DNA of 33,984 nucleotides. Origin: an uncultured Eubacteriales bacterium (GTDB lineage: Bacteria; Bacillota; Clostridia; Oscillospirales; Acutalibacteraceae). Under the pieces are notes generated by a model that ran no database searches, had not been told where the DNA came from, and saw nothing but the letters and a program-made list of their open reading frames with translations. The translations under genes were made by a program, and so were the position numbers. Positions 13,118 to 31,149 of this stretch are shown piece by piece; position 1 is the first letter of the stretch; every line of letters starts with the position of its first letter. The stretch is from the NCBI GenBank assembly GCA_900315195.1, contig OMYD01000011.1, forward strand, positions 1-33,984, read 5' to 3'.

Positions 13118-13262
13118 GTCGGCTGAGCCGACGGACAGGACGCGAATCAAATGTTTATAATAAACAAACCTTCCGTTCCCGCGAGTTAAGTTGCGCCGTT
13201 ATACTGAGCTTTCCAAATAAACCGACTTCTAAATAGGCGCGCCGGATGGAACGTCACGTTCC
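13118..13262 (+). repeat. 145-bp palindrome-ended repeat, copy A
   Basis: Starts with the hairpin GTCGGC-TGA-GCCGAC (13118-13132) and ends with GGAACGT-C-ACGTTCC (13248-13262). The interior shares blocks with the three other copies: GGACAGGACGCGAATCAAA, CCGCGAGTTAAG, GCGCCGTTATACTGAGCTT and GGCGCGCCGGATGG. It is closest to copy C. There is no ORF inside. Its 3' end is 13 bp from the Crp stop codon, and a further palindrome GCCGCGTGGCGGC (13264-13276) overlaps that stop. Confidence 0.88.
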
Positions 13263-13275
13263 TGCCGCGTGGCGG

Positions 13276-13998
13276 CTAATATTTAAAGTGTTTTGTGTCG
13301 AGTATTTTGAAGTGCTTTTTTCGGAAGTCTATTATGCCGTCGCGCTTTAATTCACCCAGCGTGCGGGAAAGAGAGGCGCGGTCAACGGCGAGATAATCAG
13401 CCATCTCCTCGCGCGAGAGCCGTATGTCAAACTCATAGGCGTGCTCGGCTTCGCAGCGGAAAAACAGAAAGCGCAGCACCTTGTCGCGTATGCTTTTCTG
13501 CGACAGACACAAAAGGTGCTCCGAAATCGAAATAAAAAGCCCGCGCGAGTATTCCAGAAGATTTATAGTCAGCCTGTGCTGGGTCGCGGCTATTTCCCTG
13601 CAGGTGCCACTTAAAAAATGCGGGTCAAAAAGCACGGCGCGGCTCGGAACATCCGCCGAAAGCTCAAACACTAAATTGTAATAATGCACCATAAACAGCA
13701 GCGGACCCAGCGAGCCGTGATCCTTCAGCGTGTTTATCACCGCGCGGTTGCCCTCGCAGTCCGTGACGAATATCGTAATGCCGCCCTTTATTACAACTCC
13801 GAACTTTTTGTCGGCGTCGGTTGTCAGCAAAAGCGGTCTGCCGGGCTCTATGTCTATAATGCTCGGCTTTGAAAATTCAATAAATTCCTTTATTTCATCC
13901 TCGCCCAGTCCGGCAAAAAGCGGATGGGCTTTAATCAGCTCAAGGTTTTCGCCGTACATCAGCGTTCGGTAATCGTCCGTGCTTTTCGGAATGTTCAT
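13276..13998 (-). CDS. Crp/Fnr-family transcriptional regulator
   Basis: A 240-residue regulator. Residues 12-140 form a cyclic-nucleotide-binding-type beta barrel (HPLFAGLGEDEIKEF, then VVIKGGITIFV), a long dimer helix follows, and the C-terminal winged helix contains LSREEMADYLAVDRASLSRTLGELKRDG. There is no N-terminal FNR-type cysteine cluster, and I cannot tell its ligand. A longer reading frame begins upstream, but the ATG at 13998 has AAAGGGG at the right distance and a TTGCAT/TATAAT promoter just upstream, so I use it. It is divergent from rnfC and shares a 230-bp intergenic region with the rnf operon, making rnf a plausible target, possibly sensing redox or energy state. Confidence 0.9.
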   Translation of the reverse strand: MNIPKSTDDYRTLMYGENLELIKAHPLFAGLGEDEIKEFIEFSKPSIIDIEPGRPLLLTTDADKKFGVVIKGGITIFVTDCEGNRAVINTLKDHGSLGPLLFMVHYYNLVFELSADVPSRAVLFDPHFLSGTCREIAATQHRLTINLLEYSRGLFISISEHLLCLSQKSIRDKVLRFLFFRCEAEHAYEFDIRLSREEMADYLAVDRASLSRTLGELKRDGIIDFRKKHFKILDTKHFKY

Positions 13999-14029
13999 AA
14001 GGACGCCCCTTTCAATATTGTTCAGGTAT

Positions 14030-14057
14030 ATTATATCACAATATTTTGCAAATGCAA
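14030..14057 (-). promoter_or_regulatory. Sigma-A promoter of the Crp/Fnr regulator gene
   Basis: Minus strand: -35 TTGCAT (14052-14057), 16-bp spacer, perfect -10 TATAAT (14030-14035). Confidence 0.72.
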
Positions 14058-14132
14058 CGGTTTGCGGCTGAAAAAACATATCATCATCTAAGCGCTTTGT
14101 TTAATTGCACAAAAAGCAAAAATATATATGTT

Positions 14133-14172
14133 GAATGTGTACATTGGCTATCGGAGCGGAATGTGGTACAAT
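14133..14172 (+). promoter_or_regulatory. rnf promoter with candidate operator repeats
   Basis: -35 TTGGCT (14144-14149), 17-bp spacer, extended -10 TGG-TACAAT (14167-14172). Two direct repeats overlap the boxes: GAATGTGTACA (14133-14143) just before the -35 and GAATGTGGTACA (14159-14170) across the -10, 26 bp apart. The first also contains the inverted repeat AATGT-GT-ACATT (14134-14145). The arrangement would suit a repressor, for instance the divergent Crp/Fnr protein; the binding itself is inferred. Confidence 0.65.
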
Positions 14173-14228
14173 TAACATATATGCGCCGTTTGGCGCAAAT
14201 TTGACGATTCTTAATCCGGAGGAGCGTT

Positions 14229-15554
14229 ATGAAAATAAAGGGTATTAAGGTACCTCACAAGAAGCACACTGCCGGTTCGGTTCCCGAGCGCATTGCGATG
14301 CCGAAGCTGGTGACTATTCCGATGTCCATGCACATCGGACGCCCCGCCAAGCCCGTTGTAAAGCGCGGCGACGAGGTAAAGGTAGGCCAGCTTATAGCGG
14401 AGGCTGACGGGTATATTTCCTCTCCCGTCCATTCAAGTGTTTCGGGCAAGGTACAGAAAATTGACGAAATGACGACCGCCATGGGCTTAAAGGTTCCCGT
14501 GGTGATTATTGAGACCGACGGCCTGCAGGAGGTAAGCGAAACCGTGCAGCCGCCCGATGTTCACGACCTTACAAGCTTTGTTGACGCGGTGCGTCAGAGC
14601 GGTTCGGTTGGTCTTGGAGGCGCGGGATTCCCGACCTTTGTAAAGTTCAGCTTCAATAACGACCTCAGCGTTGTTGACGCGGTCGTTATCAACGCCGCCG
14701 AATGCGAGCCGTATATAACCTCGGACACCCGCACAATGCTCGACAGGACAGACGAGATTTTTGAGGGCATAGCTTTGCTTAAAAAGTATCTCAAGGTGAA
14801 CCGCTATATAATCGGAGTTGAGGCAAACAAGCCCGAGGCGATTAAAAAGGCTCAGGAGCTTGCCGCAAAGACCGAGGGCGTTGAGGTTCACGTGCTTCCG
14901 TCCGTTTACCCCCAGGGCGGCGAAAAGGTGCTTGTTTACAACACGCTTGGAAGGCTGATTCCTAAGGGCGGCTTGCCGCTTGACGTGGGAGTAGTTGTAA
15001 TAAACGTAACGACGCTCGCGTTTATCGCGAGATATGTAAAAACGGGTATGCCGCTTGTTGAAAAGTGCCTTACCGTTGACGGCTCGGCCGTAAAGGAGCC
15101 CAAGAATGTTATCGCGCCCATAGGCACGCCGATTTCGGATGTGCTTGAGGCTGCGGGCGACTGCAAGAGCGAGCCCGCCAAGGTGCTCTACGGCGGCCCG
15201 ATGATGGGAATAGCTGTTCCCGATTTGAGCGCGCCGATTCTTAAAAATACAAACGCCATAATAGCCATGGACGAAAAGGAGGCGCGTCCTCCGAAAACAA
15301 CGCCGTGCATAAACTGCGGCGCGTGCTTAACGCACTGCCCGTTAAAGCTTGACCCGCGTGAAATAGCGCGCGCGTATAAAAAGAACGAGCCCGAGGATTT
15401 GAAAACCCTCTGTGTGGATTTGTGTATGGAGTGCGGCTGCTGCTCTTATGTCTGCCCCGCAAAGCGCCATCTGGTGCAGACAAACAAGCTTGCCAAGGCG
15501 GTGCTGCGCGATTATCTTAACAAGCAGAAAGCGGAAAAGGAGGGCGCTAAATGA
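14229..15554 (+). CDS. rnfC: Rnf electron transport complex, subunit RnfC
   Basis: Peripheral subunit that carries electrons between the NADH-binding site and the membrane subunits of ferredoxin:NAD+ oxidoreductase (Rnf). The 441 residues include the NAD/FMN-binding region (GLGGAGFPTFVKF near 131-143, NAAECEPYI), a Complex I 51-kDa-like fold and two [4Fe-4S] motifs, CINCGACLTHCPLKLDP and CMECGCCSYVCPAKRHLV. GGAGG ends 6 bases before the ATG. It is the first gene of the rnfCDGEAB operon and its stop overlaps the rnfD start (ATGA). Confidence 0.97.
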   Translation: MKIKGIKVPHKKHTAGSVPERIAMPKLVTIPMSMHIGRPAKPVVKRGDEVKVGQLIAEADGYISSPVHSSVSGKVQKIDEMTTAMGLKVPVVIIETDGLQEVSETVQPPDVHDLTSFVDAVRQSGSVGLGGAGFPTFVKFSFNNDLSVVDAVVINAAECEPYITSDTRTMLDRTDEIFEGIALLKKYLKVNRYIIGVEANKPEAIKKAQELAAKTEGVEVHVLPSVYPQGGEKVLVYNTLGRLIPKGGLPLDVGVVVINVTTLAFIARYVKTGMPLVEKCLTVDGSAVKEPKNVIAPIGTPISDVLEAAGDCKSEPAKVLYGGPMMGIAVPDLSAPILKNTNAIIAMDEKEARPPKTTPCINCGACLTHCPLKLDPREIARAYKKNEPEDLKTLCVDLCMECGCCSYVCPAKRHLVQTNKLAKAVLRDYLNKQKAEKEGAK

Positions 15555-16492
15555 GCAGAATGATTTCATCAGTGTCGCCGCATTTCCATAAGCCGCGCAC
15601 CACGCGCACTATAATGCTCGACGTTATTATCGCGCTTGCTCCCGCTATGATAGCGTCCGTTATCTTTTTCGGACTGCGCAGTCTGGCGGTAATTGCCGAC
15701 TGTGTGGCGGTCTGCGTTTTGTCGGAATGGGGCTTTCAAAAGCTCTGCAAAAAAGAGAGCACGGTTGACGACCTTTCTGCCGTGGTTACGGGCATTATTT
15801 TAGCGCTTAACCTGCCCGTTACAATTCCGCTGTGGCAGGCGGCGCTTGGCAGCGTAGTTGCGATTGTTGTTGTAAAGCAGCTCTTCGGCGGAATAGGACA
15901 GAATTTTGCAAACCCCGCCGCTACCGCGAGAATTATACTTATGACCGCGTTTTCGGGCACCATGACCAGCTGGGCGGTTCCCAAGGCGTTTGATTTGGTT
16001 CCCGACGCCACTACAAGCGCGACTCCCCTTGCCATGATGGCTAAGGGAGACACCGACAGCCTGCCGTCGTACCTCGACATGTTTTTAGGCAACACGGGCG
16101 GCTGTTTGGGCGAAACCTGCGCGCTGGCGCTTATTCTCGGCGGCGTGTATCTGATGGTTCGCCGCGTAATTACATGGCACACTCCTGTGGCGTTTATCGG
16201 CACGGTTGCGCTTATGTCGCTTGTCTGCGGAAAAGATGTTTTGGCTCAGGTGCTTTCGGGAGGCCTGGTGATAGCGGCGTTCTTCATGGCGACCGACTAT
16301 TCCTCAACCCCCACAACAAAATGGGGCAAGCTTGTTTTCGGCGTTGGCTGCGGACTTATTACGATATTAATAAGGTTCTGGGGCAACTTCCCCGAGGGCG
16401 TAAGCTTTTCACTGCTGATTATGAATATCCTCACGCCATATATCGATAAGCTCACGCGCGCTAAGCCGCTTGTAGGGGAGGTGGACGAGTAA
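15551..16492 (+). CDS. rnfD: Rnf complex, membrane subunit RnfD
   Basis: Integral membrane subunit of 313 residues with a covalently bound FMN, related to NqrB. Multiple hydrophobic helices flank conserved GGIGQNFANPAATARI near 115-130 and the flavinylation region ATTSATPLAMM near 155-166, whose threonine would carry FMN by a phosphoester bond through the flavin transferase ApbE (not in this window). It overlaps rnfC by 4 bp and rnfG by 1 bp, indicating translational coupling. Confidence 0.96.
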   Translation: MSRMISSVSPHFHKPRTTRTIMLDVIIALAPAMIASVIFFGLRSLAVIADCVAVCVLSEWGFQKLCKKESTVDDLSAVVTGIILALNLPVTIPLWQAALGSVVAIVVVKQLFGGIGQNFANPAATARIILMTAFSGTMTSWAVPKAFDLVPDATTSATPLAMMAKGDTDSLPSYLDMFLGNTGGCLGETCALALILGGVYLMVRRVITWHTPVAFIGTVALMSLVCGKDVLAQVLSGGLVIAAFFMATDYSSTPTTKWGKLVFGVGCGLITILIRFWGNFPEGVSFSLLIMNILTPYIDKLTRAKPLVGEVDE

Positions 16493-17022
16493 TGAAAGAC
16501 ATAGTTAAGCCTATTGTCGTGCTCGCCGCCATCTGTCTGGTGGTTACGGCGCTGCTGGCGTATATCAATTCCGTTACCTCGCCCATTATTGCCGAGGCAG
16601 AGGCTGAGGCTGAGGCAAAGGCTCAGCATGAGGTGCTCAGGGAGGCCGACAGCTTTGAGGAAGTAACGGGCGTAAGCCTGCCTGCCGGCATTACAAAAGC
16701 CGTTAAGGCTAAAAACGGCACGGGCTATGTGTTCTCGCTGACAACCAAGGGCTACGGCGGCGACATCAACCTTATCTGCGGCATTAAGTCCGACGGCAGC
16801 ATTGAGAGCGTTCAGACGCTAAAGCACAGCGAAACCAGCGGTATCGGCTCAAAGGTTGTCGATAACGGCAGCTCGTACCGCAAACAGTACGAGGGCAAAA
16901 CCGCCGACAACTACAACACCGTTGACGCGGTAACGGGCGCTACCATTTCCTCTAAGGCATACAAAAAGGCGATTGACACCGCGTTTGAAGCGTACAGCGC
17001 GGTTACAAAGGAGGCGAAGTAA
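16492..17022 (+). CDS. rnfG: Rnf complex, FMN-binding subunit RnfG
   Basis: Subunit of 176 residues with one N-terminal membrane helix (about 8-28) and an extracytoplasmic FMN-binding domain. The flavinylation motif VTGATISSKAYKKAI near 149-163 contains the acceptor threonine. A short Glu/Ala-rich stretch (AEAEAEAEAKAQ, near residue 35) links helix and domain. A GGGGAGGTGG ribosome binding site lies before the ATG, inside rnfD. Confidence 0.96.
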   Translation: MKDIVKPIVVLAAICLVVTALLAYINSVTSPIIAEAEAEAEAKAQHEVLREADSFEEVTGVSLPAGITKAVKAKNGTGYVFSLTTKGYGGDINLICGIKSDGSIESVQTLKHSETSGIGSKVVDNGSSYRKQYEGKTADNYNTVDAVTGATISSKAYKKAIDTAFEAYSAVTKEAK

Positions 17023-17718
17023 GTGAATCAGCTGCAAAACTTTTCAAAGGGACTTATTAAAGAGAACCCTGTTTTGGTGCTTGTTCTGGGAACTTGCCCC
17101 ACGCTTGCTACCTCTACCAGCGTAAGCAACGCGCTGGGCATGGGCGCGGCTGCTACCATTGTACTTCTGTGCTCCAATATAGTTATTTCGGCGCTTCGCA
17201 AAATTATCCCCGACAAGGTGCGTATTCCTTGCTACATCGTCCTTATAGCGGGCTTTGTAACGATGGTGCAGATGCTTGTAAAGGCGTTTGCTCCGGCGCT
17301 TGACCAGTCGCTGGGCATATTCCTGCCGCTTATTGTTGTAAACTGCATTATCCTGGGCAGAGCCGAGATGTTCGCAAACAAGAACACCGTGCTCAGCTCG
17401 GCGGTTGACGCTGTGGGCATGGGCGCGGGCTTTACGCTGGCGCTGACGCTGATGGCGACGATCCGCGAGGTGTTCGGCAACGGCACGTTTCTGGGAATGG
17501 AGATTCCCGTGCTCGCCGATAACAAAATCTCGATTCTTACCATGGCTCCGGGCGGATTCTTTGTATTCGGTCTGCTTATTGCCATGATGAACAAATTCGC
17601 AAAGCACAAGCCCAAGAAAAAGGACTTCGGCTGCGAGGGCTGTCCTCAGGCGGCGGCCTGCGGCAGAGCCGGCTCGGGCGGCTGTGACGGCGCGTTGACC
17701 TCGGAGGTGGCTAAATGA
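17023..17718 (+). CDS. rnfE: Rnf complex, membrane subunit RnfE
   Basis: Integral membrane subunit of 231 residues homologous to NqrD and RnfA, with LGTCPTLATSTSVSNALGMG and VVNCIILGRAEMFA, the conserved cysteine-bearing half-helices that hold the intramembrane iron-sulfur centre together with RnfA. It starts at GTG immediately after the rnfG stop, with AAAGGAGG upstream. After the last helix it has a cytoplasmic tail with four cysteines (CEGCPQAAACGRAGSGGC, residues about 204-221), beyond the part shared with NqrD. It overlaps rnfA by 4 bp. Confidence 0.96.
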   Translation: MNQLQNFSKGLIKENPVLVLVLGTCPTLATSTSVSNALGMGAAATIVLLCSNIVISALRKIIPDKVRIPCYIVLIAGFVTMVQMLVKAFAPALDQSLGIFLPLIVVNCIILGRAEMFANKNTVLSSAVDAVGMGAGFTLALTLMATIREVFGNGTFLGMEIPVLADNKISILTMAPGGFFVFGLLIAMMNKFAKHKPKKKDFGCEGCPQAAACGRAGSGGCDGALTSEVAK

Positions 17719-19452: not shown

Positions 19453-21126
19453 ATGGATATATCCGTAATTTATGACGCGGGCGTTGTGGGACTGCGCATG
19501 CTTATGCCCCTGTTCGCTATAATTATTGTTTATCAGTGCTACGCGGCAATGCGCCGCCGCAGACGTCCCGAAAAGCCGCTGGTATCATTGTATAATCCCA
19601 ATTCGGGAGGAATGATTCCCGTGGTGTTCTGGGAAAACTCCATCGGCAGAAGCAAGTCGAGCGATATTATTATCGACGACCTTTCTGTCGCGCGCAATCA
19701 CTGCGTACTTTTGCGCCGAAGCGCCGGCTGGTTTATATCGGATGTGGGTTCGGTTACAGGTACATATGTAAACGGAGTTCCCGTTCACGGCAGGGCTCAG
19801 GTGCTTATAGACGACATAATTACAATCGGAAGTACAGAGTATCAGCTAAAGCGCGGAGGCGACTTCAACTCAAAGCTGCGCCCCAGCCGCTTTTTGTCAA
19901 AGGTTAGCGACAAGCCTGCGATTCAGGCGTGGAAGCTGATGTTTATGATTACGCTGTTCCACCTGTTTATGGCGGTTGAGGCCATGTTCTGGAACGACGG
20001 CACGCACGTTTATTCTCCGCTGATTATCTTCGGCGCTCTGGCGGTTGTTGAGTGGGGCTTCTTCTGCGTTTCGTATTTTGCGTTAAGGCGCGTCAACTTT
20101 GAGCTTGAGGCTCTGGCGCTGTTTTTGACTGGCATAGGCGTTATGATGCTTGTGCGCCAGCTTGAGCGCTCGGCGTATGTCCAGCTTGTAGCGGCGGGCA
20201 TAGGAATAGCGCTTTACTGCCTTATAGTAAAATTTATTGAGGATCCCGACAGGGTAAACAAGCTGAGGCTGCCGGTGATGATTGCCGCGGTTGCCTTTCT
20301 GTCGACCAGTATTGTATTTGGCAGAGTTACAAACGGCGCGGCGAACTGGGTAAGGATCGGCTCAATTTCCTTCCAGCCCTCGGAGTTTGTAAAAACACTT
20401 TTCATATTTATAGGAGCCAGCGCGCTCGACCAGTTGATGACAAAAAAGAATTTGATTGAGCTGATTGTGTTCTCGGTAGTCTGCGTCGGACTTCTGGCGT
20501 TTATGGGCGACTTCGGAACAGCTCTTATCTTCTTTATAACCTTCCTGCTGATAGCGTTTATGCGTTCGGGCGATTTCAGAACCGTTATTCTGGCGGTTGC
20601 GTCGGCTGTGTTCGGCGTTGTGCTTGTGCTCAGCTACAAGCCTTATGTAGCCGACCGATTCAAAACGTGGCGGCATGTTTGGGAATACACCGCTACGGGC
20701 GGTTTCCAGCAGGCTACGGCGCTGATGTATATTGCCAGCGGCGGCCTGTTCGGCGTGGGTATCGGTAACGGATTTTTTAAGCAGATAGGCGAGTCCGAAA
20801 GCGATTTGGTGTTTGCGCTTATAGGCGAGGAAATGGGTGTTATCGTTGCTATTGTAATAGCAATGGCGGTCGCCCTGCTGATAATCTACGCGCGCGCTAT
20901 TACCACCAGAAGCCGAAGCGCGTTCTATTCGATTTCCGCCTGCTGCGCGGCCGGACTTCTTGTTGTTCAGCTATCGCTCAATGTTTTGGGCGCGGTTGAC
21001 ATTTTGCCCTTTACGGGCGTTACCTTCCCGTTTATCAGCGCGGGCGGTTCCAGTATAATATCCTGCTGGGGTCTGCTGGCGTTTATCAAGGCGGCTGACG
21101 AACGGACTTATTCAATTAAAAGATAG
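19453..21126 (+). CDS. FHA-domain/SEDS (FtsW/RodA/SpoVE) fusion, peptidoglycan polymerase
   Basis: A 557-residue fusion. A membrane helix (about 13-31) is followed by a cytoplasmic FHA domain (62-133: IGRSKSSDI, RNHC, NG at 107-108) and then a ten-helix SEDS glycosyltransferase. SEDS landmarks are GAANWVRIGSISFQPSEF (295-312), MGDFGTA (351-357), DRFKTWRHVW (401-410), SDLVFALIGEE (450-460) and TGVTFPFISAGGSS (521-534). It polymerises lipid II and pairs with a class B PBP, here the next gene 44 bp on. FHA domains bind phosphothreonine, so a PknB-type kinase is a likely input, but none lies in the window. At the conserved Ser of the FHA SxxH motif this protein has Ala80 (ARNH), so phosphopeptide binding may be altered. 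AAGGAGG precedes the ATG by 10 bases. Confidence 0.93.
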   Translation: MDISVIYDAGVVGLRMLMPLFAIIIVYQCYAAMRRRRRPEKPLVSLYNPNSGGMIPVVFWENSIGRSKSSDIIIDDLSVARNHCVLLRRSAGWFISDVGSVTGTYVNGVPVHGRAQVLIDDIITIGSTEYQLKRGGDFNSKLRPSRFLSKVSDKPAIQAWKLMFMITLFHLFMAVEAMFWNDGTHVYSPLIIFGALAVVEWGFFCVSYFALRRVNFELEALALFLTGIGVMMLVRQLERSAYVQLVAAGIGIALYCLIVKFIEDPDRVNKLRLPVMIAAVAFLSTSIVFGRVTNGAANWVRIGSISFQPSEFVKTLFIFIGASALDQLMTKKNLIELIVFSVVCVGLLAFMGDFGTALIFFITFLLIAFMRSGDFRTVILAVASAVFGVVLVLSYKPYVADRFKTWRHVWEYTATGGFQQATALMYIASGGLFGVGIGNGFFKQIGESESDLVFALIGEEMGVIVAIVIAMAVALLIIYARAITTRSRSAFYSISACCAAGLLVVQLSLNVLGAVDILPFTGVTFPFISAGGSSIISCWGLLAFIKAADERTYSIKR

Positions 21127-21170: not shown

Positions 21171-22565
21171 ATGAAACGAATGCTCAGGCGAAGCACATTT
21201 ATTCTTATTTTCACCTTGGCGTTTATTATCGGCATAAGCTCTTTTACTGTTGAGTTGGTCGCGAACGCGAACAAATGGGTTGACCAGCCGTATAACGACC
21301 ATATTTATGTTAAGGGCGGATTACAGGAAGCGGGCGAGATTTTTGACCGCAACGGCACATCTCTTGCCAAAACCGTTGACAAGAAGCGCGTTTACAACAG
21401 CGACGAGAGCATACGCAAGTCGCTGCTACATACGGTGGGCGACGACAGCATGAATATCTCAACCGCCGTGCAGAGCAAGCTCCGCTCTACTTTGACAGGC
21501 TACAGTTTTATCTGGGGCATGAATATGCCTGAGTCTGCGCGTTATTCGCGCGATATCACACTTACGGTGGACGCCGATACATGCAAGGCCGCTTACGATG
21601 TTCTTACCTCCGGTTTTGAGGAGCCTAAGCGCGGCGCGTGCGTCATTTACAACTACAAAACAGGCGAGGTAATATGCTCGGTCAGCACTCCCGGCTACGA
21701 CCCGTCTGATCCGCCGAAGATAACAGAAGATAACGAGAGCGAGTACGAGGGCGTGTACCTCGACAATGTTCTTTCGTCTGCATATACACCGGGCTCGGTT
21801 TTCAAAATAGTTACCGCGGCGGCGGCAATTGAAAACATTCCCGATATTTATCAGCGTACCTGGTACTGCAGCGGCAGCGAGGAAATCGGCGGCCATGACA
21901 TAAGGTGCGTGGACGGCGAGGCTCACGGCGAAATAAATCTGAAGCAGGCTATGGAACAGTCCTGCAACATCGTGTTTGCTAAGCTTGCTGTTGAGCTGGG
22001 CCCCGAAAAAATGAAGGCGGCGGCTGATAAAATGGGTATCAACATGAGCTTTGACGTCGATGACACAAAAACCGCCAAGGGGCATTATAACACCGACGGC
22101 GCCGACACAAATGCGCTTGCGTGGTCGGGCGTAGGTCAGGGCATAGGCGAGTACGAGGATAAGGTCAACCCCATGCAGATGGCGATTATGTGCGGAGCCA
22201 TAGCAAACGGCGGAACCGCCAAGGGCGCCACATGCATTAAGAACGCCGAGGGAGATACTCTCAGAAAAATCGGCTTCAAAAAGCCCGGAGACCACTCGCT
22301 TGTTAATTCCGATACGGCGCGGCAGCTGCTTGACATAATGCCCGAATACTCAATAGGCGGACTAAAGGTTCACGCCAAAACGGGTACCGCCGAGGTCGGC
22401 GACAACAAGAAGAATAACGCGTGGTTTGTTGGCTGCGCTCTTGACGAGGACTGTCCGCTGGCATTCGCGTGCGTTGTAGAGGACGCGGGCTTCGGTAACT
22501 CATATGCCCGTCCCGTTGTAGAGGCGGCGCTGTCCACTGCGGCTCAGAAGCTGCGAGGAACGTGA
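21171..22565 (+). CDS. Class B penicillin-binding protein (transpeptidase), PbpA/FtsI-like
   Basis: A 464-residue peptidoglycan transpeptidase with an N-terminal membrane anchor (8-28), a short dimerisation/pedestal region starting at EIFDRNGTSLA (56-66), and a transpeptidase domain with all three signatures: SVFK (S209, K212), SCN (264-266) and KTGT (403-406). It resembles actinobacterial PbpA, which also follows a SEDS gene. It is co-transcribed with the FHA-SEDS gene; GGCGGTGG stands before the ATG. The last three codons and stop (R-G-T-TGA) run into repeat copy B: the stop codon lies within the repeat's terminal palindrome at 22557-22571, so the native C-terminus may have been slightly different. 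Confidence 0.94.
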   Translation: MKRMLRRSTFILIFTLAFIIGISSFTVELVANANKWVDQPYNDHIYVKGGLQEAGEIFDRNGTSLAKTVDKKRVYNSDESIRKSLLHTVGDDSMNISTAVQSKLRSTLTGYSFIWGMNMPESARYSRDITLTVDADTCKAAYDVLTSGFEEPKRGACVIYNYKTGEVICSVSTPGYDPSDPPKITEDNESEYEGVYLDNVLSSAYTPGSVFKIVTAAAAIENIPDIYQRTWYCSGSEEIGGHDIRCVDGEAHGEINLKQAMEQSCNIVFAKLAVELGPEKMKAAADKMGINMSFDVDDTKTAKGHYNTDGADTNALAWSGVGQGIGEYEDKVNPMQMAIMCGAIANGGTAKGATCIKNAEGDTLRKIGFKKPGDHSLVNSDTARQLLDIMPEYSIGGLKVHAKTGTAEVGDNKKNNAWFVGCALDEDCPLAFACVVEDAGFGNSYARPVVEAALSTAAQKLRGT

Positions 22566-22728
22566 CGTTCCATCCAAAGCCGCCTTTGGATCACAGGATA
22601 TATTATAAAAGTTTCTGCAACGGCGTGTCTAAACTCGCGGGTTTGGAAGTTTTATTAAACGCAATTGTATGATTCACGTCATGTGCGTCGGCTCAGCTGA
22701 CCGCGTACTGTCCATCGCGTCACGCGAC
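22557..22728 (-). repeat. 145-bp palindrome-ended repeat, copy B (inverted, with 27-bp 5' extension)
   Basis: On the minus strand the core runs 22701 to 22557, exactly 145 bp, ending in GGAACGT-C-ACGTTCC (22571 to 22557). A second 5' hairpin unit precedes it: GTCGCG-TGA-CGCGAT plus GGACAGTACGCG (22728 to 22702), then GTCAGC-TGA-GCCGAC (22701 to 22687). So both hairpin types seen in other copies occur in tandem. Interior changes relative to copies A and C include a perfect ATCCAAAG-GCGG-CTTTGGAT hairpin. It overlaps the PBP stop and fills most of the gap before secA; no clear secA promoter is seen in the remaining 55 bp. Confidence 0.85.
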
Positions 22729-25657: not shown

Positions 25658-25671
25658 TTTAAAACTATCCC

Positions 25672-25784: not shown

Positions 25785-26120
25785 ATGTATGACAGAATAT
25801 ACCGCGCAGTGCAAATGATACCCAAAGGCAGGGTAGCGACCTACGGTCAGGTCGCGGCGATGGCAGTCGGCTGAGCCGACGGACAGGACGCGAATCAAAC
25901 GTTTGTTATTACCAAAACTTCCCAACCCGCGAGTTAAAATGCGCCGTTATACTGAGCTTACCTAAAAAACCGACTTTTCCAAAGGCGCGCCGGATGGAAC
26001 GTCACGTTCCCGGGCTTTGCTTTCGGAGGAAAAAATGAGCAGCGGAGACTGCTTGAAAAAGAGGGCGTAGAGGTTGTTGACAACCGCGTTGACCTGAAAA
26101 AGTATCAGTTCAGAGGATGA
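25785..26120 (+). pseudogene. Alkyltransferase-like (MGMT-family) gene disrupted by repeat copy C
   Basis: The 5' fragment from the ATG at 25785 reads MYDRIYRAVQMIPKGRVATY and continues GQVAAMA, the N-terminal wing of MGMT-family alkyltransferase-like proteins, and then hits a TGA (25872-25874) inside the repeat. After the repeat, in the same frame, 26013-26120 reads GFAFGGKNEQRRLLEKEGVE and ends DLKKYQFRG-stop, the family's C-terminus. About 35 central residues, which would include the PCHR (or PWHR) alkyl-acceptor-site motif, are missing and replaced by the 145-bp repeat. Intact relatives are about 100 residues. The 5' end lacks a clear ribosome binding site, so the original start is uncertain. 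Loss of function is essentially certain if no second copy compensates. Confidence 0.85.
25866..26010 (+). repeat. 145-bp palindrome-ended repeat, copy C
   Basis: Exactly 145 bp, from GTCGGC-TGA-GCCGAC (25866-25880) to GGAACGT-C-ACGTTCC (25996-26010). It is nearly identical to copy A in the first 35 bases and through GCGCCGTTATACTGAGCTT, and contains GGCGCGCCGGATGG. Because it sits inside a recognisable gene, its two edges are defined by coding sequence rather than by alignment alone. No target-site duplication is visible. Confidence 0.9.
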
Positions 26121-26178: not shown

Positions 26179-26207
26179 TTGCATTTCCCCACAAAATGTG
26201 GTATAAT
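26179..26207 (+). promoter_or_regulatory. Sigma-A promoter of the Cof-type HAD gene with an inverted repeat in the spacer
   Basis: -35 TTGCAT (26179-26184), 17-bp spacer, extended -10 TGG-TATAAT (26202-26207). The spacer holds CCACA-AAA-TGTGG (26189-26201), a perfect 5-bp inverted repeat positioned where a repressor would block RNA polymerase. Confidence 0.75.
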
Positions 26208-26287
26208 ATACGCGATTGATGTGTAATGCTTTTGCAAACCTTATCCGCCGAAGTTTATCCGGACGAATATGTATTTGGAGAGATAAT

Positions 26288-27097
26288 ATGGATTACAAAT
26301 TAATCGCACTTGACATTGACGGCACGCTTACCAACTCAAGAAAAGAGATTACACCGCGCACGCGTTACGCGCTGCTTGAGGCGCAGGCTCAGGGCAAGAA
26401 GATCATTCTCGCCTCGGGCAGACACCCGATCGGGGTGTATCCTATTGCGCGCGACCTCAGACTGGACTTGAACGGCGGCTATATAATGTCCTTTAACGGG
26501 GGCAAAATAATTGAATGCGCCACCAACCGCACAATAGTCACAAAGCTTTTTCCGCGTGAGTATCTCGCCGACATAGTAAGTGTGCTCAAGGATTCCAACA
26601 TCACGGTTATTACCTGGGACGACAGGCGCATTTACGCCGACAGTAAGCGCAATGACTATACCGACGTCGAGCAGGATGTGCTGAAAACAGAGATGGTTGT
26701 GGTGGACGATTTTGTGTCTGAAATCAAGTTCGATATAAATAAGATTCTGCTGGCGGGCGAGCCTGACGAGCTTGACGAGTATCAAAAAATCCTCGCAAAG
26801 CGTTACGACGGTTTGCTTGAGGTTTATAAAAGCGCGCCGTATTTTCTGGAGCTTATGCCGCTTGGCGTTTCAAAGGGCTCGATGCTGCCCCTGCTTCTTG
26901 ACAAACTGGGGGTAAAGCGCGACGAGCTTATTGCCTTCGGCGACGAGTACAATGACATGACCATGATCGGTTATGCGGGTATGGGTGTCGCAATGGCAAA
27001 CGGCGAGCTCGAGGTGCAGAAAATCGCCAATTACGTCTGCCCATCCAACGACGAGGACGGAGTTGCCGACACTCTGCAAAAGTTTGTTTTGAAATAA
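26288..27097 (+). CDS. Cof-type HAD-IIB family hydrolase
   Basis: A 269-residue HAD phosphatase with motif I ALDIDGTLTNSRKEI (nucleophile D9), motif II ILASGRHP, then SFNGGKI, the lysine motif GVSKGSMLPLLL and motif IV FGDEYNDMTMI. This layout is typical of YidA/Cof sugar-phosphate phosphatases; the substrate is unknown. The start is the ATG at 26288, with GGAGAG 5 bases before it; a longer frame from 26216 would begin at the transcription start of the promoter and adds a tail unlike the family. It is monocistronic, with its own promoter and terminator. It is a second HAD-IIB protein besides the one at 7954-8781. Confidence 0.9.
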   Translation: MDYKLIALDIDGTLTNSRKEITPRTRYALLEAQAQGKKIILASGRHPIGVYPIARDLRLDLNGGYIMSFNGGKIIECATNRTIVTKLFPREYLADIVSVLKDSNITVITWDDRRIYADSKRNDYTDVEQDVLKTEMVVVDDFVSEIKFDINKILLAGEPDELDEYQKILAKRYDGLLEVYKSAPYFLELMPLGVSKGSMLPLLLDKLGVKRDELIAFGDEYNDMTMIGYAGMGVAMANGELEVQKIANYVCPSNDEDGVADTLQKFVLK

Positions 27098-27125
27098 CGG
27101 GGCGTATATCGCTCCGTTTTGTTTT
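27097..27125 (+). terminator. Rho-independent terminator of the HAD gene
   Basis: ACGGGGCG/CGCTCCGT stem (one G-T pair) with TATAT loop and TTTTGTTTT tail, beginning at the stop codon. Confidence 0.82.
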
Positions 27126-27210
27126 GCCATGATTTTTTACTGTGCAATACGCACACCTTAATTATGCAGTATTGCCTTAACATTCGTAAATATTTGCATA
27201 TTTCAAAAAG

Positions 27211-27239
27211 TTGCCTTTTCTTAAAAAGTATGGTATAAT
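27211..27239 (+). promoter_or_regulatory. Sigma-A promoter of the citrate synthase gene
   Basis: -35 TTGCCT (27211-27216), 17-bp spacer, extended -10 TGG-TATAAT (27234-27239). Confidence 0.8.
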
Positions 27240-27288
27240 ATATAGTCTGAGAAAATATGATTAAGTAGAATGGAGAGGAAGTGATTAC

Positions 27289-28659
27289 ATGACGCACGCT
27301 GAATGGGAGTATTCTGATATTACCCCGGAGATTAACGTTCTTGCCGAAAAGATGTCCGAGAACTCAAAAATCGACATTGATTTGTACAGCAAATACGATG
27401 TAAAAAGAGGTTTGCGTGACATTGACGGAAAGGGTGTTCTGACAGGACTTACCGATATTTCCACTATTAAGCAGAACAAGCTGGTGGACGGAAAGCTGGT
27501 TCCCTGCGACGGCGAGCTTTATTATCGCGGCTACAATGTCAACGATATTGTCAACGGCATTATGAAGGACAACCGCTTTGGCTTTGAGGAGGTTGTTTAT
27601 CTGCTGCTGTTCGGCGAGATGCCTACCGCTGAGGAGCTTAAATCCTTTAAAGAGCTGTTGGTGCGTTACAGAACCCTTCCCCAGAACTTTGTGCGCGACG
27701 TTATTTTAAAGGCGCCCAGCGACGATATGATGAACACTATCGCGCGAAGCGTGCTGACTCTGTTCTGTTACGATAAACACGCTAACGACACCTCGATAAA
27801 CAACGTGCTCAGGCAGTGCATACAGCTGATTTCGGTATTCCCGATGCTTTCGGTTTACGGCTATCACGCCTATAACCACTACCTGCGCGACAAGAGCCTT
27901 TATATCCACTACGCCGAGCCCACCATGTCAACCGCGGAGGTTATTCTTTCGCTGCTGCGCCCCGACCGCAAGTACACCGAGCTTGAGGCTAAGGTTCTGG
28001 ACATGGCGCTGATTCTGCATATGGAGCACGGCGGCGGCAACAACTCCACCTTTACGACCCACGTTGTAACTTCGTCGGGCACCGATACATACTCGGCGGT
28101 TTCCGCTGCTCTGGCATCACTTAAAGGCCCGAAGCACGGCGGCGCGAACGTCAAGGTCTTTGAAATGTTTGAGGATTTAAAGAAAAACGTCACCGACCGC
28201 AAGGACGACGACGCTATTACAGATTATCTTGAAAAGCTGCTCGATAAAAAGGCTTTTGATAAAAAAGGCCTTATCTACGGCATGGGACATGCGGTATATA
28301 CAATAAGCGACCCGCGTCAGAAAATTCTCAAGGGCGCTGTTCAGACGCTCGCGCATGTTGAGGGATATTCCGACGACTTTGATTTATATGAGCGCGTTGA
28401 GCGTTTAGCGCCTCTCGTTATCGGCAAAAAGCGGAGAATCTACAAGGGCGTAGCCTCAAATGTAGACTTCTACAGCGGCTTGCTTTACAGTATGCTTGAT
28501 ATTCCCTGCGAGCTTTACACACCGCTGTTTGCTACGGCGCGTATCGCGGGATGGAGCGCTCACCGCATGGAAGAGCTTATTAACGCGGGCAAGATTATCC
28601 GCCCGGCGTACATGAGCATTTCTACGGAAAAGAATTATACACCGCTTGCGGAAAGATAA
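27289..28659 (+). CDS. gltA: Citrate synthase
   Basis: Condenses acetyl-CoA and oxaloacetate to citrate, here probably feeding the oxidative branch toward 2-oxoglutarate and glutamate, as is usual in anaerobes with a partial TCA cycle. The 456-residue protein carries the citrate synthase catalytic triad regions: HMEHGGGNNSTF (first His), GMGHAVYTISDPR (second His) and ASNVDFYSGLL (Asp), with GPKHGGAN as the substrate-loop signature. It has about 50 extra N-terminal residues compared with short bacterial enzymes, as in other clostridial members. A GAGAGGAAG ribosome binding site precedes the ATG. No aconitase or isocitrate dehydrogenase is adjacent. A weak terminator follows, so the DUF1275 gene may be partly co-transcribed. 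Confidence 0.95.
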   Translation: MTHAEWEYSDITPEINVLAEKMSENSKIDIDLYSKYDVKRGLRDIDGKGVLTGLTDISTIKQNKLVDGKLVPCDGELYYRGYNVNDIVNGIMKDNRFGFEEVVYLLLFGEMPTAEELKSFKELLVRYRTLPQNFVRDVILKAPSDDMMNTIARSVLTLFCYDKHANDTSINNVLRQCIQLISVFPMLSVYGYHAYNHYLRDKSLYIHYAEPTMSTAEVILSLLRPDRKYTELEAKVLDMALILHMEHGGGNNSTFTTHVVTSSGTDTYSAVSAALASLKGPKHGGANVKVFEMFEDLKKNVTDRKDDDAITDYLEKLLDKKAFDKKGLIYGMGHAVYTISDPRQKILKGAVQTLAHVEGYSDDFDLYERVERLAPLVIGKKRRIYKGVASNVDFYSGLLYSMLDIPCELYTPLFATARIAGWSAHRMEELINAGKIIRPAYMSISTEKNYTPLAER

Positions 28660-28687
28660 GCGGCGTGACTAACCCCAATACATAATT

Positions 28688-28713
28688 AAAGGCGGCCTCA
28701 GGGGTCGCCTTTG
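28688..28713 (+). terminator. Weak terminator-like hairpin after gltA
   Basis: AAAGGCGGCC/GGTCGCCTTT stem of ten pairs (one G-T) with a TCAGG loop, but only TTTG follows, so read-through into the next gene is likely. Confidence 0.55.
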
Positions 28714-28754
28714 CTGTATCAGACAGAATTCGGGACAGATAAGGAATGTTAAAA

Positions 28755-29432
28755 ATGAAAAAGATAATTCAGCGGCAAAAGCTTGTCCACTACTCCGCCT
28801 CGCTGATAGGCGGATTTTTGGCAGGGTACACCGTCTTTAATCACATGGAGATTTTGGGAAACGCCCAGACGGGCAACCTTATCAGAATGATGCTCGACCT
28901 GTGCCGCGGGAACCTGACATTTATATGGTTTATGGTGCTCAGCTTTTTGATTTACTGCGGCGGAAATGTGTTTTATGTGCTTGTCAGACGCAAGGTGAAA
29001 ATCAGCATGAAAATTGTCAGCCTGATCTGCACCTCGGCGGCGGTTATCGCTGTGGGGGCGATCCCCTATGTGCGCAACGACTATGTGGCGTGTTACCCGA
29101 TTATTTTCGTCGCGCCCATTCAGTGGAACGCATTTAAAATCGCCGCGGGAAACTCAAGCTCAACTATATTTTCGTCGAATAACGTGCGTCAGGCGTCGAT
29201 GCTTACGACAAATTACATTCTGTCCCGCGACAAGGCGACGGGCGCAAAGGCGCGCTTTTATTGGCTGACGCTCTTGTCGTTTAATTCGGGCGTTGCAATG
29301 GCAGGCTTGCTTAGTATGTGGCTCGGTGTTTTCAGTATTTGGTTCTGCTTTGTGCCGATCGGAATTACGGTTGTAAACTATTATTTTTACATGAGCGAGA
29401 AGCTGCGCGTAGCGGCGCTCGTGAATGCATGA
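28755..29432 (+). CDS. DUF1275 (YoaK-like) membrane protein
   Basis: A 225-residue polytopic membrane protein with about six hydrophobic segments. The family signature GFLAGYTVFNHMEILGNAQTGN is visible near residues 19-40; I quote only its landmarks GNAQTGN and SSSTIFSSNNVRQ. The function of this family is unknown; transport roles have been proposed. The start is taken at the ATG at 28755 because AAGGA ends 9 bases before it; the ATG at 28746 directly abuts that site. No promoter was found, and it may rely on read-through from gltA. It converges with the CpXC gene. Confidence 0.85.
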   Translation: MKKIIQRQKLVHYSASLIGGFLAGYTVFNHMEILGNAQTGNLIRMMLDLCRGNLTFIWFMVLSFLIYCGGNVFYVLVRRKVKISMKIVSLICTSAAVIAVGAIPYVRNDYVACYPIIFVAPIQWNAFKIAAGNSSSTIFSSNNVRQASMLTTNYILSRDKATGAKARFYWLTLLSFNSGVAMAGLLSMWLGVFSIWFCFVPIGITVVNYYFYMSEKLRVAALVNA

Positions 29433-29461
29433 CGAGGGATTGACAGTTGGATTACTGATCC

Positions 29462-29487
29462 AAAAAGCCTCCTTTATGAAAGGAGCC
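29462..29487 (-). terminator. Terminator of the CpXC gene at a convergent junction
   Basis: On the minus strand GGCTCCTTT-CAT-AAAGGAGGC (one internal mismatch) is followed by TTTTT. Its 17-base core is identical to that at 13088-13104. On the plus strand it lacks a T-run but could act as a hairpin for the DUF1275 transcript. Confidence 0.75.
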
Positions 29488-29511
29488 TGTTGCGCGCCGC
29501 TAACCGCTAAA

Positions 29512-30210
29512 TCATTCCTTCAGTTTGTTCAGTTTTTCGATTTGCTTTGCTCGCTTATAGCGGTAGAGGATGTTTTCCGCCCACTCGCGGTCGATTTTTA
29601 TAAAGCCCTTCAGCTTTTTGTCCTTTACGGCGAAGTTCTCGATAATGTCCTTTGACTTGCCGTAGATTTCCAGCCTTGCGGTCTGGACGTAAGGCGTTCT
29701 GTCTTCGCCCGTAAAGTAAGTAAAGCCCATTGTGTTGCTCTCGCGGTCATACATCGACAGGTAGCCCTCATTTACAGAAACGCCGCCGAGCTTTTTTGAA
29801 ACGGTCTGGCTTATGGCGACCTTTGTAAGCTCAACAGCCATGTCGTCAAGACGGGACTCAAAAATAAAAATCTTCTCCTTAAATGAGTTGAAATCGGAGA
29901 CAACGCGCTTGCTTATGTTGCGAAGGTTGCTGTATTTGTCCTCAAGCTCTTTGTCACAGAGCTGAAAACGGTCGATTTTAGGAATAAGATAAACCATAAA
30001 GCGGTTTTTCATATCATTGTAAAGAATCGGGTATGTCAGACGGGCGTTGTATTTGCAAGACGGACATGTCCACGCGAAAAGCGAGCCGTCAAGCACGCGT
30101 TCACGGTATTTTTTATTTTTAACAACGTTTACGCTTGTGTAAATTTCCGCTTTGCCCAGGTTGCCGCACATGGGGCAAACGACAGCTTTGTTGGTCTTGT
30201 TTTCAGACAT
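29512..30210 (-). CDS. CpXC-domain protein
   Basis: A 232-residue protein whose first 75 residues form a zinc-ribbon-like CpXC domain: CPMCG at 12-16 and CPSC at 49-52, with the conserved VLDGSLFAWTC and LTYPILYNDMKNRFMVYLIP. The C-terminal 120 residues are charged and predicted alpha/beta; no further motif is recognised. It looks cytoplasmic, with no signal peptide. CpXC proteins are common in Clostridia and of unknown function; nucleic-acid or protein binding through zinc is a guess. AAAGGAG lies before the ATG and a TTGTGA/TATAAT promoter 42 bp upstream. It is divergent from the unknown gene at 30379. Confidence 0.85.
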   Translation of the reverse strand: MSENKTNKAVVCPMCGNLGKAEIYTSVNVVKNKKYRERVLDGSLFAWTCPSCKYNARLTYPILYNDMKNRFMVYLIPKIDRFQLCDKELEDKYSNLRNISKRVVSDFNSFKEKIFIFESRLDDMAVELTKVAISQTVSKKLGGVSVNEGYLSMYDRESNTMGFTYFTGEDRTPYVQTARLEIYGKSKDIIENFAVKDKKLKGFIKIDREWAENILYRYKRAKQIEKLNKLKE

Positions 30211-30251
30211 TGCGGCTCCGCTCCTTTCTGAAAGCGCTTACTTTACTCTAT

Positions 30252-30280
30252 ATTATACCAACCCGACGCAATTTTCACAA
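30252..30280 (-). promoter_or_regulatory. Sigma-A promoter of the CpXC gene
   Basis: Minus strand: -35 TTGTGA (30275-30280), 17-bp spacer, extended -10 TGG-TATAAT (30252-30257). Confidence 0.72.
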
Positions 30281-30298
30281 GTAAATTTTAAAAAAATG

Positions 30299-30327
30299 TT
30301 GATTTTATTCAAAATATCTGTCATAAT
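30299..30327 (+). promoter_or_regulatory. Candidate sigma-A promoter of the 170-residue unknown gene
   Basis: -35 TTGATT (30299-30304), 17-bp spacer, -10 CATAAT (30322-30327), 51 bp before the start codon. Confidence 0.6.
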
Positions 30328-30378
30328 AATAGCGTAAAAAAAATACGTGGCAATAAATCTAAGTCGGAGGTATTGAAT

Positions 30379-30891
30379 ATGGAATTTTTTAATACATTAA
30401 AAAGCGGATTCGGCACAGCGGTTGAATCCATCTCAACCATTGCTATGAATCTGATTGAAAACAAACGCACCGCCGCAAAGCTTAATCGCCTCAGAGATGT
30501 TATGAAGAGCGAGAGCGAGCTTATGAACCGTGCGTATATAGCGCTTGGCAAGGGTTATTACGAGCAAATCAAAAAGGGCGAAAAACCCAACACCGAGCGC
30601 GAGGCTAAGCTTGTTGAGCTTATTGACAACTGCAAGGCCAAGATTGCCAGAGCCAGAGAGTGCTACAGAAAAATTGTAGAGAATCAGAACGCAGACCTGT
30701 TTTCCGCTCCCGCGGAAAAGACGGTTGAGGAGCCGTTTGAGAAGCAGGACGTAGTTGACATCACCGTTGCCTGCTCAAACGAGAGCGACTACGCTTCAAG
30801 CCCCTTTGATAACTGCGGCAAGAAGGACGTTGTAGAGGAAATCGCCGACGAGTTTATCGACGACGAATCCCCGATTGACGAGCTGTTTTAA
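30379..30891 (+). CDS. Conserved-looking small protein of unknown function
   Basis: A 170-residue soluble protein that I do not recognise by name. Residues 1-105 are predicted helical and probably coiled-coil, rich in Lys/Arg/Glu (LNRLRDVMKSESELMNRAYI, then GKGYYEQIKKGEKPN); the last 60 residues are acidic and low in structure, ending DDESPIDELF. There is no membrane segment or signal peptide. The start is the ATG at 30379, 8 bases after GGAGG; the upstream in-frame TTG is too close to that site. It has its own promoter and a hairpin after the stop. The two-part layout, basic helical then acidic tail, could suit a scaffold or nucleic-acid-associated protein, but that is a guess. Confidence 0.8.
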   Translation: MEFFNTLKSGFGTAVESISTIAMNLIENKRTAAKLNRLRDVMKSESELMNRAYIALGKGYYEQIKKGEKPNTEREAKLVELIDNCKAKIARARECYRKIVENQNADLFSAPAEKTVEEPFEKQDVVDITVACSNESDYASSPFDNCGKKDVVEEIADEFIDDESPIDELF

Positions 30892-30904
30892 ATAGTACAA
30901 AAAC

Positions 30905-30946
30905 CGCCGGCTTAAACTCAGTCCGAGTTGAGCCGGCGATTATATT
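30905..30946 (+). terminator. Hairpin terminator of the unknown gene
   Basis: CGCCGGCT/AGCCGGCG stem extended by an inner AACTC/GAGTT part with one bulge; the tail ATTATATTT is only moderately T-rich. Confidence 0.68.
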
Positions 30947-30947
30947 T

Positions 30948-30961
30948 AATGCGGAATTCGG
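30948..30961. repeat. Short dispersed motif TTAATGCGGAATTC
   Basis: Inverted copy of the motif at 8804-8817, here directly after the hairpin of the preceding gene. The rest of the gap 30892-31226 holds repeat copy D and a bidirectional terminator. Confidence 0.4.
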
Positions 30962-31003
30962 AATGCTGAATTGCGCAGCGTTTTATTTCTCGGTGCAGGG
31001 GCG

Positions 31004-31149
31004 GTCGCGTGACGCGACGGACACGACGCGCAACTAACGTTTGTAAAAAAATATTACCGTTATTTCCGCGTTAAGATGCGCCGTTGCAGAAAGGTTTTTT
31101 TGTTATATCATCGCTTTCCAAAGGCGCGCCGGATGCAACGTCACGTTGC
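31004..31149 (+). repeat. 145-bp-type palindrome-ended repeat, copy D (146 bp)
   Basis: Starts GTCGCG-TGA-CGCGAC (31004-31018) and ends GCAACGT-C-ACGTTGC (31135-31149). Compared with copies A and C, two pairs in the 5' stem and one pair in the 3' stem are changed on both strands, so pairing is kept. CCAAAGGCGCGCCGGATG is conserved before the 3' hairpin; the middle has diverged (T-rich). The element ends 3 bp before the terminator that serves the minus-strand DUF6465-type gene. Confidence 0.85.

What the first reader, a model, noticed from the sequence alone, without database searches (positions are those of the whole stretch)
13118..31149. Four copies of a ~145-bp intergenic element with compensatory changes in both terminal palindromes
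Seen directly: copies at 13118-13262, 22557-22701 (inverted), 25866-26010 and 31004-31149 are 145, 145, 145 and 146 bp. The 5' palindrome is GTCGGC-TGA-GCCGAC in A and C but GTCGCG-TGA-CGCGAC in D; two base pairs are swapped on both arms. The 3' palindrome is GGAACGT-C-ACGTTCC in A, B and C but GCAACGT-C-ACGTTGC in D, again with both arms changed. Such paired changes imply that the folded form is selected. Each end is a self-palindrome rather than one half of a terminal inverted repeat, there is no target duplication, and no ORF. Inference: a non-autonomous element moved in trans by a hairpin-recognising HUH (IS200/IS605- or RAYT-like) transposase, or a structured RNA family.
Basis: partly seen in the sequence, partly recalled or inferred. 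Interest (0 to 1): 0.78.

Follow-up and report, generated by a model that had tools for sequence, protein, structure and literature searches.

The report
Hairpin-capped repeat family in uncultured Clostridia
The four repeats belong to a family of about a hundred short, palindrome-capped DNA elements scattered through this bacterium's genome and those of its close relatives, and the small hairpins at their ends are often exchanged as whole units between related species.

Summary
The four copies belong to a large dispersed family: 103 covariance-model matches at E<=0.001 in the window's genome, matches in 83 of 150 genomes drawn from its genus, own included, and in 0 of the 196 other genomes drawn from the order. 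A full element is a ~110-nt body capped at both ends, in inverted orientation, by a hairpin cassette: 6 bp, mostly a TGA loop, 6 bp, a short tail, then CGCG. Cassettes can be stacked at 25 or 27 nt spacing. Relatives have element-free orthologous sites. Copy C stands in place of 106 bp of an MGMT-type gene that two sister species carry uninterrupted. It is REP/BIME/REPIN-like dispersed DNA, without the GTAG or CGTC tag. The HUH idea is not supported: no significant association with Y1/RAYT genes, and 0 of 34 RAYT loci has such a hairpin within 800 bp, though only 7 lie in copy-rich genomes. A structured RNA is unlikely: 134 two-sided changes against 3 one-sided. The 'compensatory' changes are largely whole-hairpin swaps: at 14 of 21 orthologous ends the flank is kept and the hairpin differs (my reading). 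The mobilising enzyme is unknown.

The parts
13118..13262 (+). Copy A: 5' hairpin 13118-13132, body, 3' hairpin 13248-13262. In G006 and G085 the site holds only an older 3'-half element.
   Evidence: (152.1 bits)
22557..22701 (-). Copy B: on the minus strand, between a PBP2-like gene and secA. Its TGA loop is the stop codon of the PBP2-like gene (22563-22565). The site is element-free in G006, G085, G013 and G154.
   Evidence: (137.7 bits)
22702..22728 (-). A second 27-nt 5' hairpin cassette (hairpin, tail, CGCG) stacked outside copy B
   Evidence: 27 nt, 96% identical to a cassette in G085
25866..26010 (+). Copy C: interrupts an MGMT/ATL-type gene; 106 bp present in G006 and G085 are missing
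   Evidence: (151.7 bits)
25785..25865 (+). Left remnant of the interrupted MGMT/ATL-type gene
26011..26120 (+). Right remnant of the interrupted MGMT/ATL-type gene
31004..31149 (+). Copy D: the 3' part is shared with G006, G085, G103 and G154, but the terminal hairpin is of three different types among the five genomes
   Evidence: (125.2 bits)

Best explanation
The copies are members of a family of REP/BIME/REPIN-like palindromic elements that was found only in this genus. The unit is a cassette of 25 or 27 nt: a 6-bp hairpin with a mostly TGA loop, a tail xxxC(A/G), then CGCG. The typical element is a conserved body with such cassettes at its ends in inverted orientation; cassettes can be stacked, and the 3' half can stand alone or in 83-bp tandem arrays. 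SHOWN: the copies are dispersed, relatives have element-free sites, the hairpin pairs are almost always Watson-Crick, and at orthologous sites hairpins are found replaced whole while the flanks stay. INFERRED: the extruded single-stranded hairpin is the substrate of a DNA-processing activity encoded elsewhere. New places are taken without target duplication, sometimes with target loss. Existing copies then exchange their end cassettes by structure-dependent breakage, possibly at the loop or foot of the hairpin, and by repair or recombination at the CGCG boxes. The enzyme is not identified.
For: Copies: 103 matches at E<=0.001 in the own genome, 83 of 150 genus genomes, 0 of 196 others in the order. 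Spacing among 245 distinct hairpins: inward-facing pairs peak at 141-146 nt, same-orientation pairs at 27 and 25 and at 81 and 83 nt; an 83-bp array of 3.7 copies. Symmetry: 20 places match the model on both strands at the same coordinates, and several stems occur at both ends. Structure: in 38 aligned copies 97.8% of cells are paired against 71.0% shuffled, with 134 two-sided and 3 one-sided changes. In 63 elements (126 ends, none dropped) 102 hairpins are perfect, 11 are off by one or two, 13 are absent; in the 113 present there are 665 Watson-Crick, 3 G.T and 10 mismatched cells. Empty sites: copies B and C, the argB-GNAT and argC-argJ sites. Whole-hairpin swaps: copy D site, and 14 of 21 orthologous ends read. 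Intermediates: L126 and L002 keep the 5' arm and loop of a relative's hairpin, followed by a new hairpin; L065 joins the 5' arm of one type to the 3' arm and tail of another.
Against: No enzyme was found; only Y1-type genes and the neighbours of four clusters were looked at. No copy was caught moving. In one search the best match to copy C outside itself is 88% identical, so there is no sign of a very recent burst. Copy C shows a 106-bp target loss, which a simple precise insertion does not give. Intergenic flanks are often too diverged to place junctions to the base. The swap count was read by eye from one listing, not scored blind, and in one case (L149) the other hairpin stands outside a further hairpin. 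The 38 rows were chosen from hits of a model that carries the structure, which leans towards pairing; 13 of 126 ends have no such hairpin. The genomes compared for sites and hairpins are draft assemblies of many contigs.
Confidence: 0.6

Rival explanations
1. REPINs moved in trans by a Y1/HUH transposase (RAYT or IS200 type); the gene has since been lost in part of the clade.
For: Matches to the RAYT model NF047646 exist in 81 of 150 genus genomes at E<=1e-5 (some of the weaker ones are at the places of the IS200-type genes), and two lie in the window's genome. The element ends are hairpins and no target duplication is seen. RAYT copies or remnants at the arg operon in several relatives suggest an ancestral presence. 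RAYT frequency is somewhat higher in element-bearing genomes, 38 of 83 against 21 of 67 at E<=1e-10, p=0.09. Loss of the gene with repeats left behind is described for REPs (PMC6006769, passages).
Against: The association is not significant. Of 23 genomes with at least 7 listed matches 8 match neither model, and of 12 with at least 15 it is 4. None of 34 RAYT loci has a TGA-type hairpin with tail within 800 bp, but only 7 of them lie in copy-rich genomes. GGGC-led palindromes lie in or beside 4 of 34 RAYT genes, and palindromes of that look are nested inside these elements at L062 and L118.
Confidence: 0.25
2. The palindromes stay perfect without selection: template switching within quasi-palindromes copies one arm onto the other, and ectopic gene conversion between copies replaces hairpins.
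For: G.T and mismatched pairs are rare. Swaps occur as blocks. Hybrids have their junction at or near the loop (L126, L002, L065).
Against: It does not explain the first arrival at empty sites (copies B and C; argB site). Conversion alone would not obviously stop at the outer edge of the hairpin, where donor and recipient share no flank.
Confidence: 0.3
3. A structured RNA family, for example a repeated small RNA or mRNA element.
For: Conserved stems, including an internal GCGCC/GGCGC stem with two-sided changes in 3 of its 4 pairs.
Against: Strand is unbiased relative to genes, 24 of 47. G.U is almost absent. One copy interrupts a gene. No Rfam match at gathering score. Partial and stacked forms are common.
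Confidence: 0.06

Closest known systems
REPINs / REP dimers (Bertels and Rainey 2011, PMC3116915, passages read)
   Same: Two palindromic REP units in inverted orientation with a spacer, many copies, mostly extragenic, singlets and clusters also present.
   Different: In P. fluorescens SBW25 REPIN clusters lie beside RAYT genes; here the RAYT loci examined lack the hairpins. The body here is long and conserved, and the terminal hairpins differ between orthologous copies.
GTAG- and CGTC-tagged REPs (Di Nocera et al. 2013, PMC3733652, abstract, passages and section 16 read)
   Same: Small hairpins with an unpaired tail, inverted dimers with spacers mostly of 20-100 bp, preference for gene 3' ends, some providing a stop codon to a flanking gene or lying inside genes. 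CGTC REPs also lack a dedicated transposase.
   Different: Those carry an unpaired GTAG or CGTC at one end; here no such tag prevails. The words Clostridi and Firmicutes do not occur in that paper's main text.
TnpA-REP classes (PMC6006769, passages read)
   Same: REP-like hairpins in high copy number exist with and without a neighbouring Y1 gene; some (class 3) have an atypical foot, CnGA.
   Different: Those structures were found flanking Y1 genes; the relation of CnGA structures to the present hairpins was not tested.
BIMEs (bacterial interspersed mosaic elements; features as given in the start of the abstract of PMC2817692, seen in search listings only)
   Same: Mosaic of palindromic units in alternating orientation, modular arrays.
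   Different: Different sequence and units; hairpin replacement at orthologous sites is what is described here.
IS200/IS605 (HUH) elements
   Same: Hairpin ends, no target duplication (general knowledge).
   Different: No copy with the same ends around a Y1 gene was noticed in the loci examined.

Membership tests
REP / BIME / REPIN | Small (20-40 nt) palindromic unit with an unpaired conserved part, present in high copy number | tested here: met
   25 or 27 nt cassettes, 245 distinct hairpins in the loci examined; 103 model matches at E<=0.001 in one genome
REP / BIME / REPIN | Units paired in inverted orientation at preferred distances | tested here: met
   inward-facing pairs peak at 141-146 nt
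REP / BIME / REPIN | Mostly extragenic, near gene 3' ends | tested here: met
   of 47 copies: 13 unidirectional, 13 convergent, 3 divergent, 7 inside stop-to-stop frames, 11 one side only; median distance to gene 3' end 56.5 nt, n=46 (simple ORF calling)
GTAG / CGTC-tagged REPs | Unpaired GTAG or CGTC tag at the foot of the stem | tested here: not met
   stems begin at the element end; just outside, C at -2 in 27 and G at -1 in 29 of 42 flanks, often the end of another cassette
REPtron / RAYT-mobilised REPIN | Cognate units flank the RAYT gene, and the gene occurs with the repeats | tested here: not met
   0 of 34 RAYT loci, 0 of 7 in copy-rich genomes, with a hairpin within 800 bp; association not significant
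IS200/IS605-type non-autonomous element | Autonomous copy with the same ends around a Y1 gene | tested here: inconclusive
   none beside the Y1 loci examined, but whole genomes could not be scanned for it
Classical MITE | Terminal inverted repeats and target site duplication | tested here: not met
   no duplication at A-D; the ends are related in structure, not simple inverted repeats
Structured RNA family | Conserved fold with wobble-tolerant covariation, transcribed strand | tested here: inconclusive
   fold conserved but G.U almost absent, no strand bias; transcription not testable here

The most novel reading that the evidence does not exclude
The 25-27 nt hairpin cassette is itself a mobile or exchangeable unit. 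A structure-specific process cuts at the foot or loop of an extruded hairpin and replaces it with the hairpin of another copy, keeping the flank to the base. That would explain perfect palindromes, stacked cassettes, hybrids joined near the loop, and paired changes, without a dedicated transposase.
Probability: 0.3. Interest if true: 0.72.

Novelty: new variant of a known kind. Interest (0 to 1): 0.5.

Why it matters
How REP-type palindromes spread and stay palindromic without a dedicated transposase is open (stated for CGTC repeats in PMC3733652). This clade offers closely related species with many copies, empty sites and orthologous sites whose hairpins differ. Hairpin exchange, arm copying and insertion can therefore be told apart by comparison. 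It also warns that 'compensatory' changes in repeats may be module swaps rather than selection on an RNA or DNA fold.

Tried and rejected
Y1/RAYT as the obligatory mobiliser: tested by co-occurrence with two models and by neighbourhood; not supported. One search used a fixed offset and counted one gene twice (1 of 35 with a hairpin); one search repeats it with the true coordinates and is the one reported. The list of 21 copy-rich genomes missed two genomes with 7 matches (G079, G130); one search recounts it. Rfam at gathering score: nothing. Phage and plasmid records with copy C and viral contigs with the element pattern: nothing; viral contigs with a RAYT protein: nothing. Genes next to four dense clusters as an enzyme candidate (10 proteins of L050, L064, L065, L066): ordinary genes (S1 domain, cyclophilin, MBOAT, L17/RpoA, ABC transporter, PLP enzyme and the like), nothing shared. 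Strand bias against gene direction: none. The single Bosea hit of the pattern scan was set aside as likely chance and not examined.

Dropped before counts. Swap count: 4 cases dropped as ambiguous or paralogous (L021/L009/L022, L027/L153, L064/L153, L025/L118), leaving 21 ends. Alignment A1: 21 full-length copies out of 108 profile hits. Alignment A4: 30 of the 42 hits printed plus 8 others; of the 12 left out, 8 have no recognisable 5' hairpin. One search set aside 6 of 102 ends; one search counts all ends of 63 elements without dropping any.

Literature searches on which the novelty statement rests: (open-access library only; two returned no paper). In these listings and in the passages read I saw no description of this family.

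Recalled, from no call: that RUG stands for rumen uncultured genomes; that SbcCD-type nucleases cut DNA hairpins (abstract starts in the listing agree); that G.U pairs are common in covarying RNA helices.
Full report
CHECK. All four copies are at the stated coordinates with the stated lengths and palindromes. Seven of their eight end hairpins are perfect 6-bp stems; the 5' hairpin of copy B has one mismatch. Read inward from either end, each end is a hairpin with loop TGA, then a tail xxxC(A/G), then a GC-rich box. The ends are therefore inverted relatives, not unrelated palindromes.

EXTENT. BLAST with copy C gave 50 matches in the window's own genome, a draft of 2.11 Mb in 125 contigs. A covariance model built from 21 copies gave 114 matches at E<=0.1. 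Of these 103 are at E<=0.001; two of them are opposite-strand matches to the same places and some overlap in arrays, while only 150 of 924 candidate places were scored. In 150 genomes drawn from the genus, own included, 83 have a match at E<=0.001 (21 candidates scored per genome). In 197 genomes drawn from the order only the own genome has one at E<=1e-4, and none of the 13 listed from other genera of the same family (stricter filters, 16 candidates scored per genome). In 17 of 20 element-bearing genomes compared, SecA is 88-98% identical to the window's; the others are G152 (81%), G074 (79%) and G117 (86% and 68% in two pieces). Two genomes with SecA at 88 and 89% (G044, G045) show no match, so presence does not follow relatedness strictly. 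Contig lengths identify G006 as RUG447, G085 as RUG196, G103 as SRR8387717_bin.37 and G106 as RUG277, all titled uncultured Clostridia or Clostridiales.

ANATOMY. The element is hairpin, tail, about 110 nt of body, tail, hairpin. In 38 chosen copies, 97.8% of cells of the named structure are paired, against 71.0% after shuffling and 27-54% when slid. Fifteen of 16 pairs have two-sided changes, including 3 of 4 pairs of an internal GCGCC/GGCGC stem. Two-sided changes number 134 and one-sided 3. The rows come from hits of a model that carries the structure, and 12 of 42 printed hits were left out, 8 of them without a 5' hairpin, so the percentage leans towards the structure. With nothing dropped, 63 elements have 126 ends: 102 perfect hairpins, 11 off by one or two, 13 without (9 at the 5', 4 at the 3' end); the 113 hairpins hold 665 Watson-Crick, 3 G.T and 10 mismatched cells. 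Of 96 hairpin ends, 76 have the loop TGA. The near absence of G.T speaks for a DNA palindrome rather than an RNA fold (inference; the expectation for RNA is recalled knowledge). Twenty places match the model on both strands at the same coordinates, so the element is itself a rough palindrome. Hairpins of one orientation follow each other at 27 or 25 nt, and at 81 or 83 nt; inward-facing pairs span 141-146 nt. Stacks of three or more cassettes occur (L209; L169 and L189), copy B has a second cassette outside its 5' end (22702-22728), and L050 has a tandem array of 83-bp units. 3' halves occur alone (for example model positions 70-144 at G000:C93:17722-17796).

MOBILITY. Copy C sits in a gene that is uninterrupted in G006 and G085: 106 bp of the gene are missing and 145 bp of element stand in their place. 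The G006 protein matches PF01035, the DNA-binding domain of O6-methylguanine DNA methyltransferase. Copy B's site is element-free in G006, G085, G013 and G154. Between argB and a GNAT gene the element is present in G000 and G085 and not seen in G013, G154 and G058; G103 and G106 have other hairpins there. The argC-argJ site is occupied in G000 and G085, also in G006 and G106, and element-free in G103, G013 and G058. Copy A's site in G006 and G085 holds only a 3'-half remnant, so A looks like an addition to or replacement of an older copy. No target duplication was seen. Because many intergenic flanks are diverged, the junctions of B and of the arg sites cannot be set to the base.

HAIRPIN SWAPS. 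At copy D's 3' end, G000, G085 and G103 carry the GCAACG hairpin, G006 carries GCCCGC-CAC-GCGGGC in the same place, and G154 a third one. In G006 the sequence agrees on both sides of a 20-nt block. I read the listing for element ends with an element-free 70-nt flank whose ortholog in another genome is also occupied. There were 21 such ends: at 14 the hairpin is of a different type, and at 7 it is the same. Four ambiguous or paralogous cases were dropped. In one of the 14 (L149) the different hairpin stands outside a further hairpin, so that case is a stack. L126 and L002 (both RUG447) keep the 5' arm and loop of the hairpin type seen in relatives and continue with a new hairpin. L065 has the 5' arm of one type joined to the 3' arm and tail of another. 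The evidence is mainly about 3' ends, and 11 of the 14 involve one alternative hairpin kind (CAC loop with tail AGGAA).

WHICH ENZYME. The Y1 family PF01797 is in 42 of 83 element-bearing and 36 of 67 element-free genomes, p=0.74. The RAYT model NF047646 at E<=1e-5 is in 50 of 83 against 31 of 67, p=0.10; at E<=1e-10 in 38 of 83 against 21 of 67, p=0.09; either model in 53 of 83 against 40 of 67, p=0.62. A weak association is thus not excluded. Of 34 distinct RAYT loci none has a TGA-type hairpin with tail within 800 bp of the match; only 7 of the 34 lie in copy-rich genomes, so this is a small test. GGGC-led palindromes lie in or just beside 4 of the 34 RAYT genes, and palindromes of that look are nested inside these elements at L062 and L118. 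If the RAYTs serve that other repeat family, this would fit (inference). Genes beside the four dense clusters examined are ordinary.

KNOWN KINDS. By the features given in PMC3733652 (abstract, passages, section 16) and PMC3116915 (passages), this works and looks like REP dimers or REPINs: small hairpins with a tail, inverted pairs, gene 3' ends, occasional provision of a stop codon, occasional gene interruption. It fails the tag test (no GTAG or CGTC) and the RAYT-neighbour test. CGTC repeats are reported there as also lacking a dedicated transposase. I therefore file it as a new variant of REP/BIME-type repeats, not as a member of the GTAG or CGTC superfamilies. In the searches I saw no description of it; the library holds open-access papers only.

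VERDICT. A real, large family of dispersed palindromic elements, found in this genus and not in the sampled rest of the order. The HUH inference is unproven and not favoured. The most interesting part is the replacement of whole hairpins at fixed places.

Noticed in passing
G000:C122, locus L049 6131-6645 and 9157-9634: Two RAYT-like genes lie inside the arg operon (argH-RAYT-argC and argJ-RAYT-argB). The first is absent with a short junction from G006, G085, G154 and G103 and present in G058 and G106; the second is absent from G085, G154 and G058, present in G013 and G106, and seems a remnant in G103. The second looks frameshifted in G000.
   Followed up: partly
L036, L047, L039 (RAYT genes); L062 and L118 (elements): GGGC...GCCC palindromes lie inside some RAYT genes, and similar ones are nested in the TGA-type elements. 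This suggests a second REP family.
   Followed up: partly
window 22563-22565: The stop codon of the PBP2-like gene is the TGA loop of copy B's hairpin.
   Followed up: yes
window 10255-12990 and 19453-21123: A 912-aa protein with a YidC-like part at residues 35-222, and a 557-aa FtsW/RodA-like protein whose N-terminal part matches FHA-domain models.
   Followed up: no
L119, Bosea vaviloviae contig: One exact match of the 25-letter element pattern in an unrelated bacterium, probably chance.
   Followed up: no
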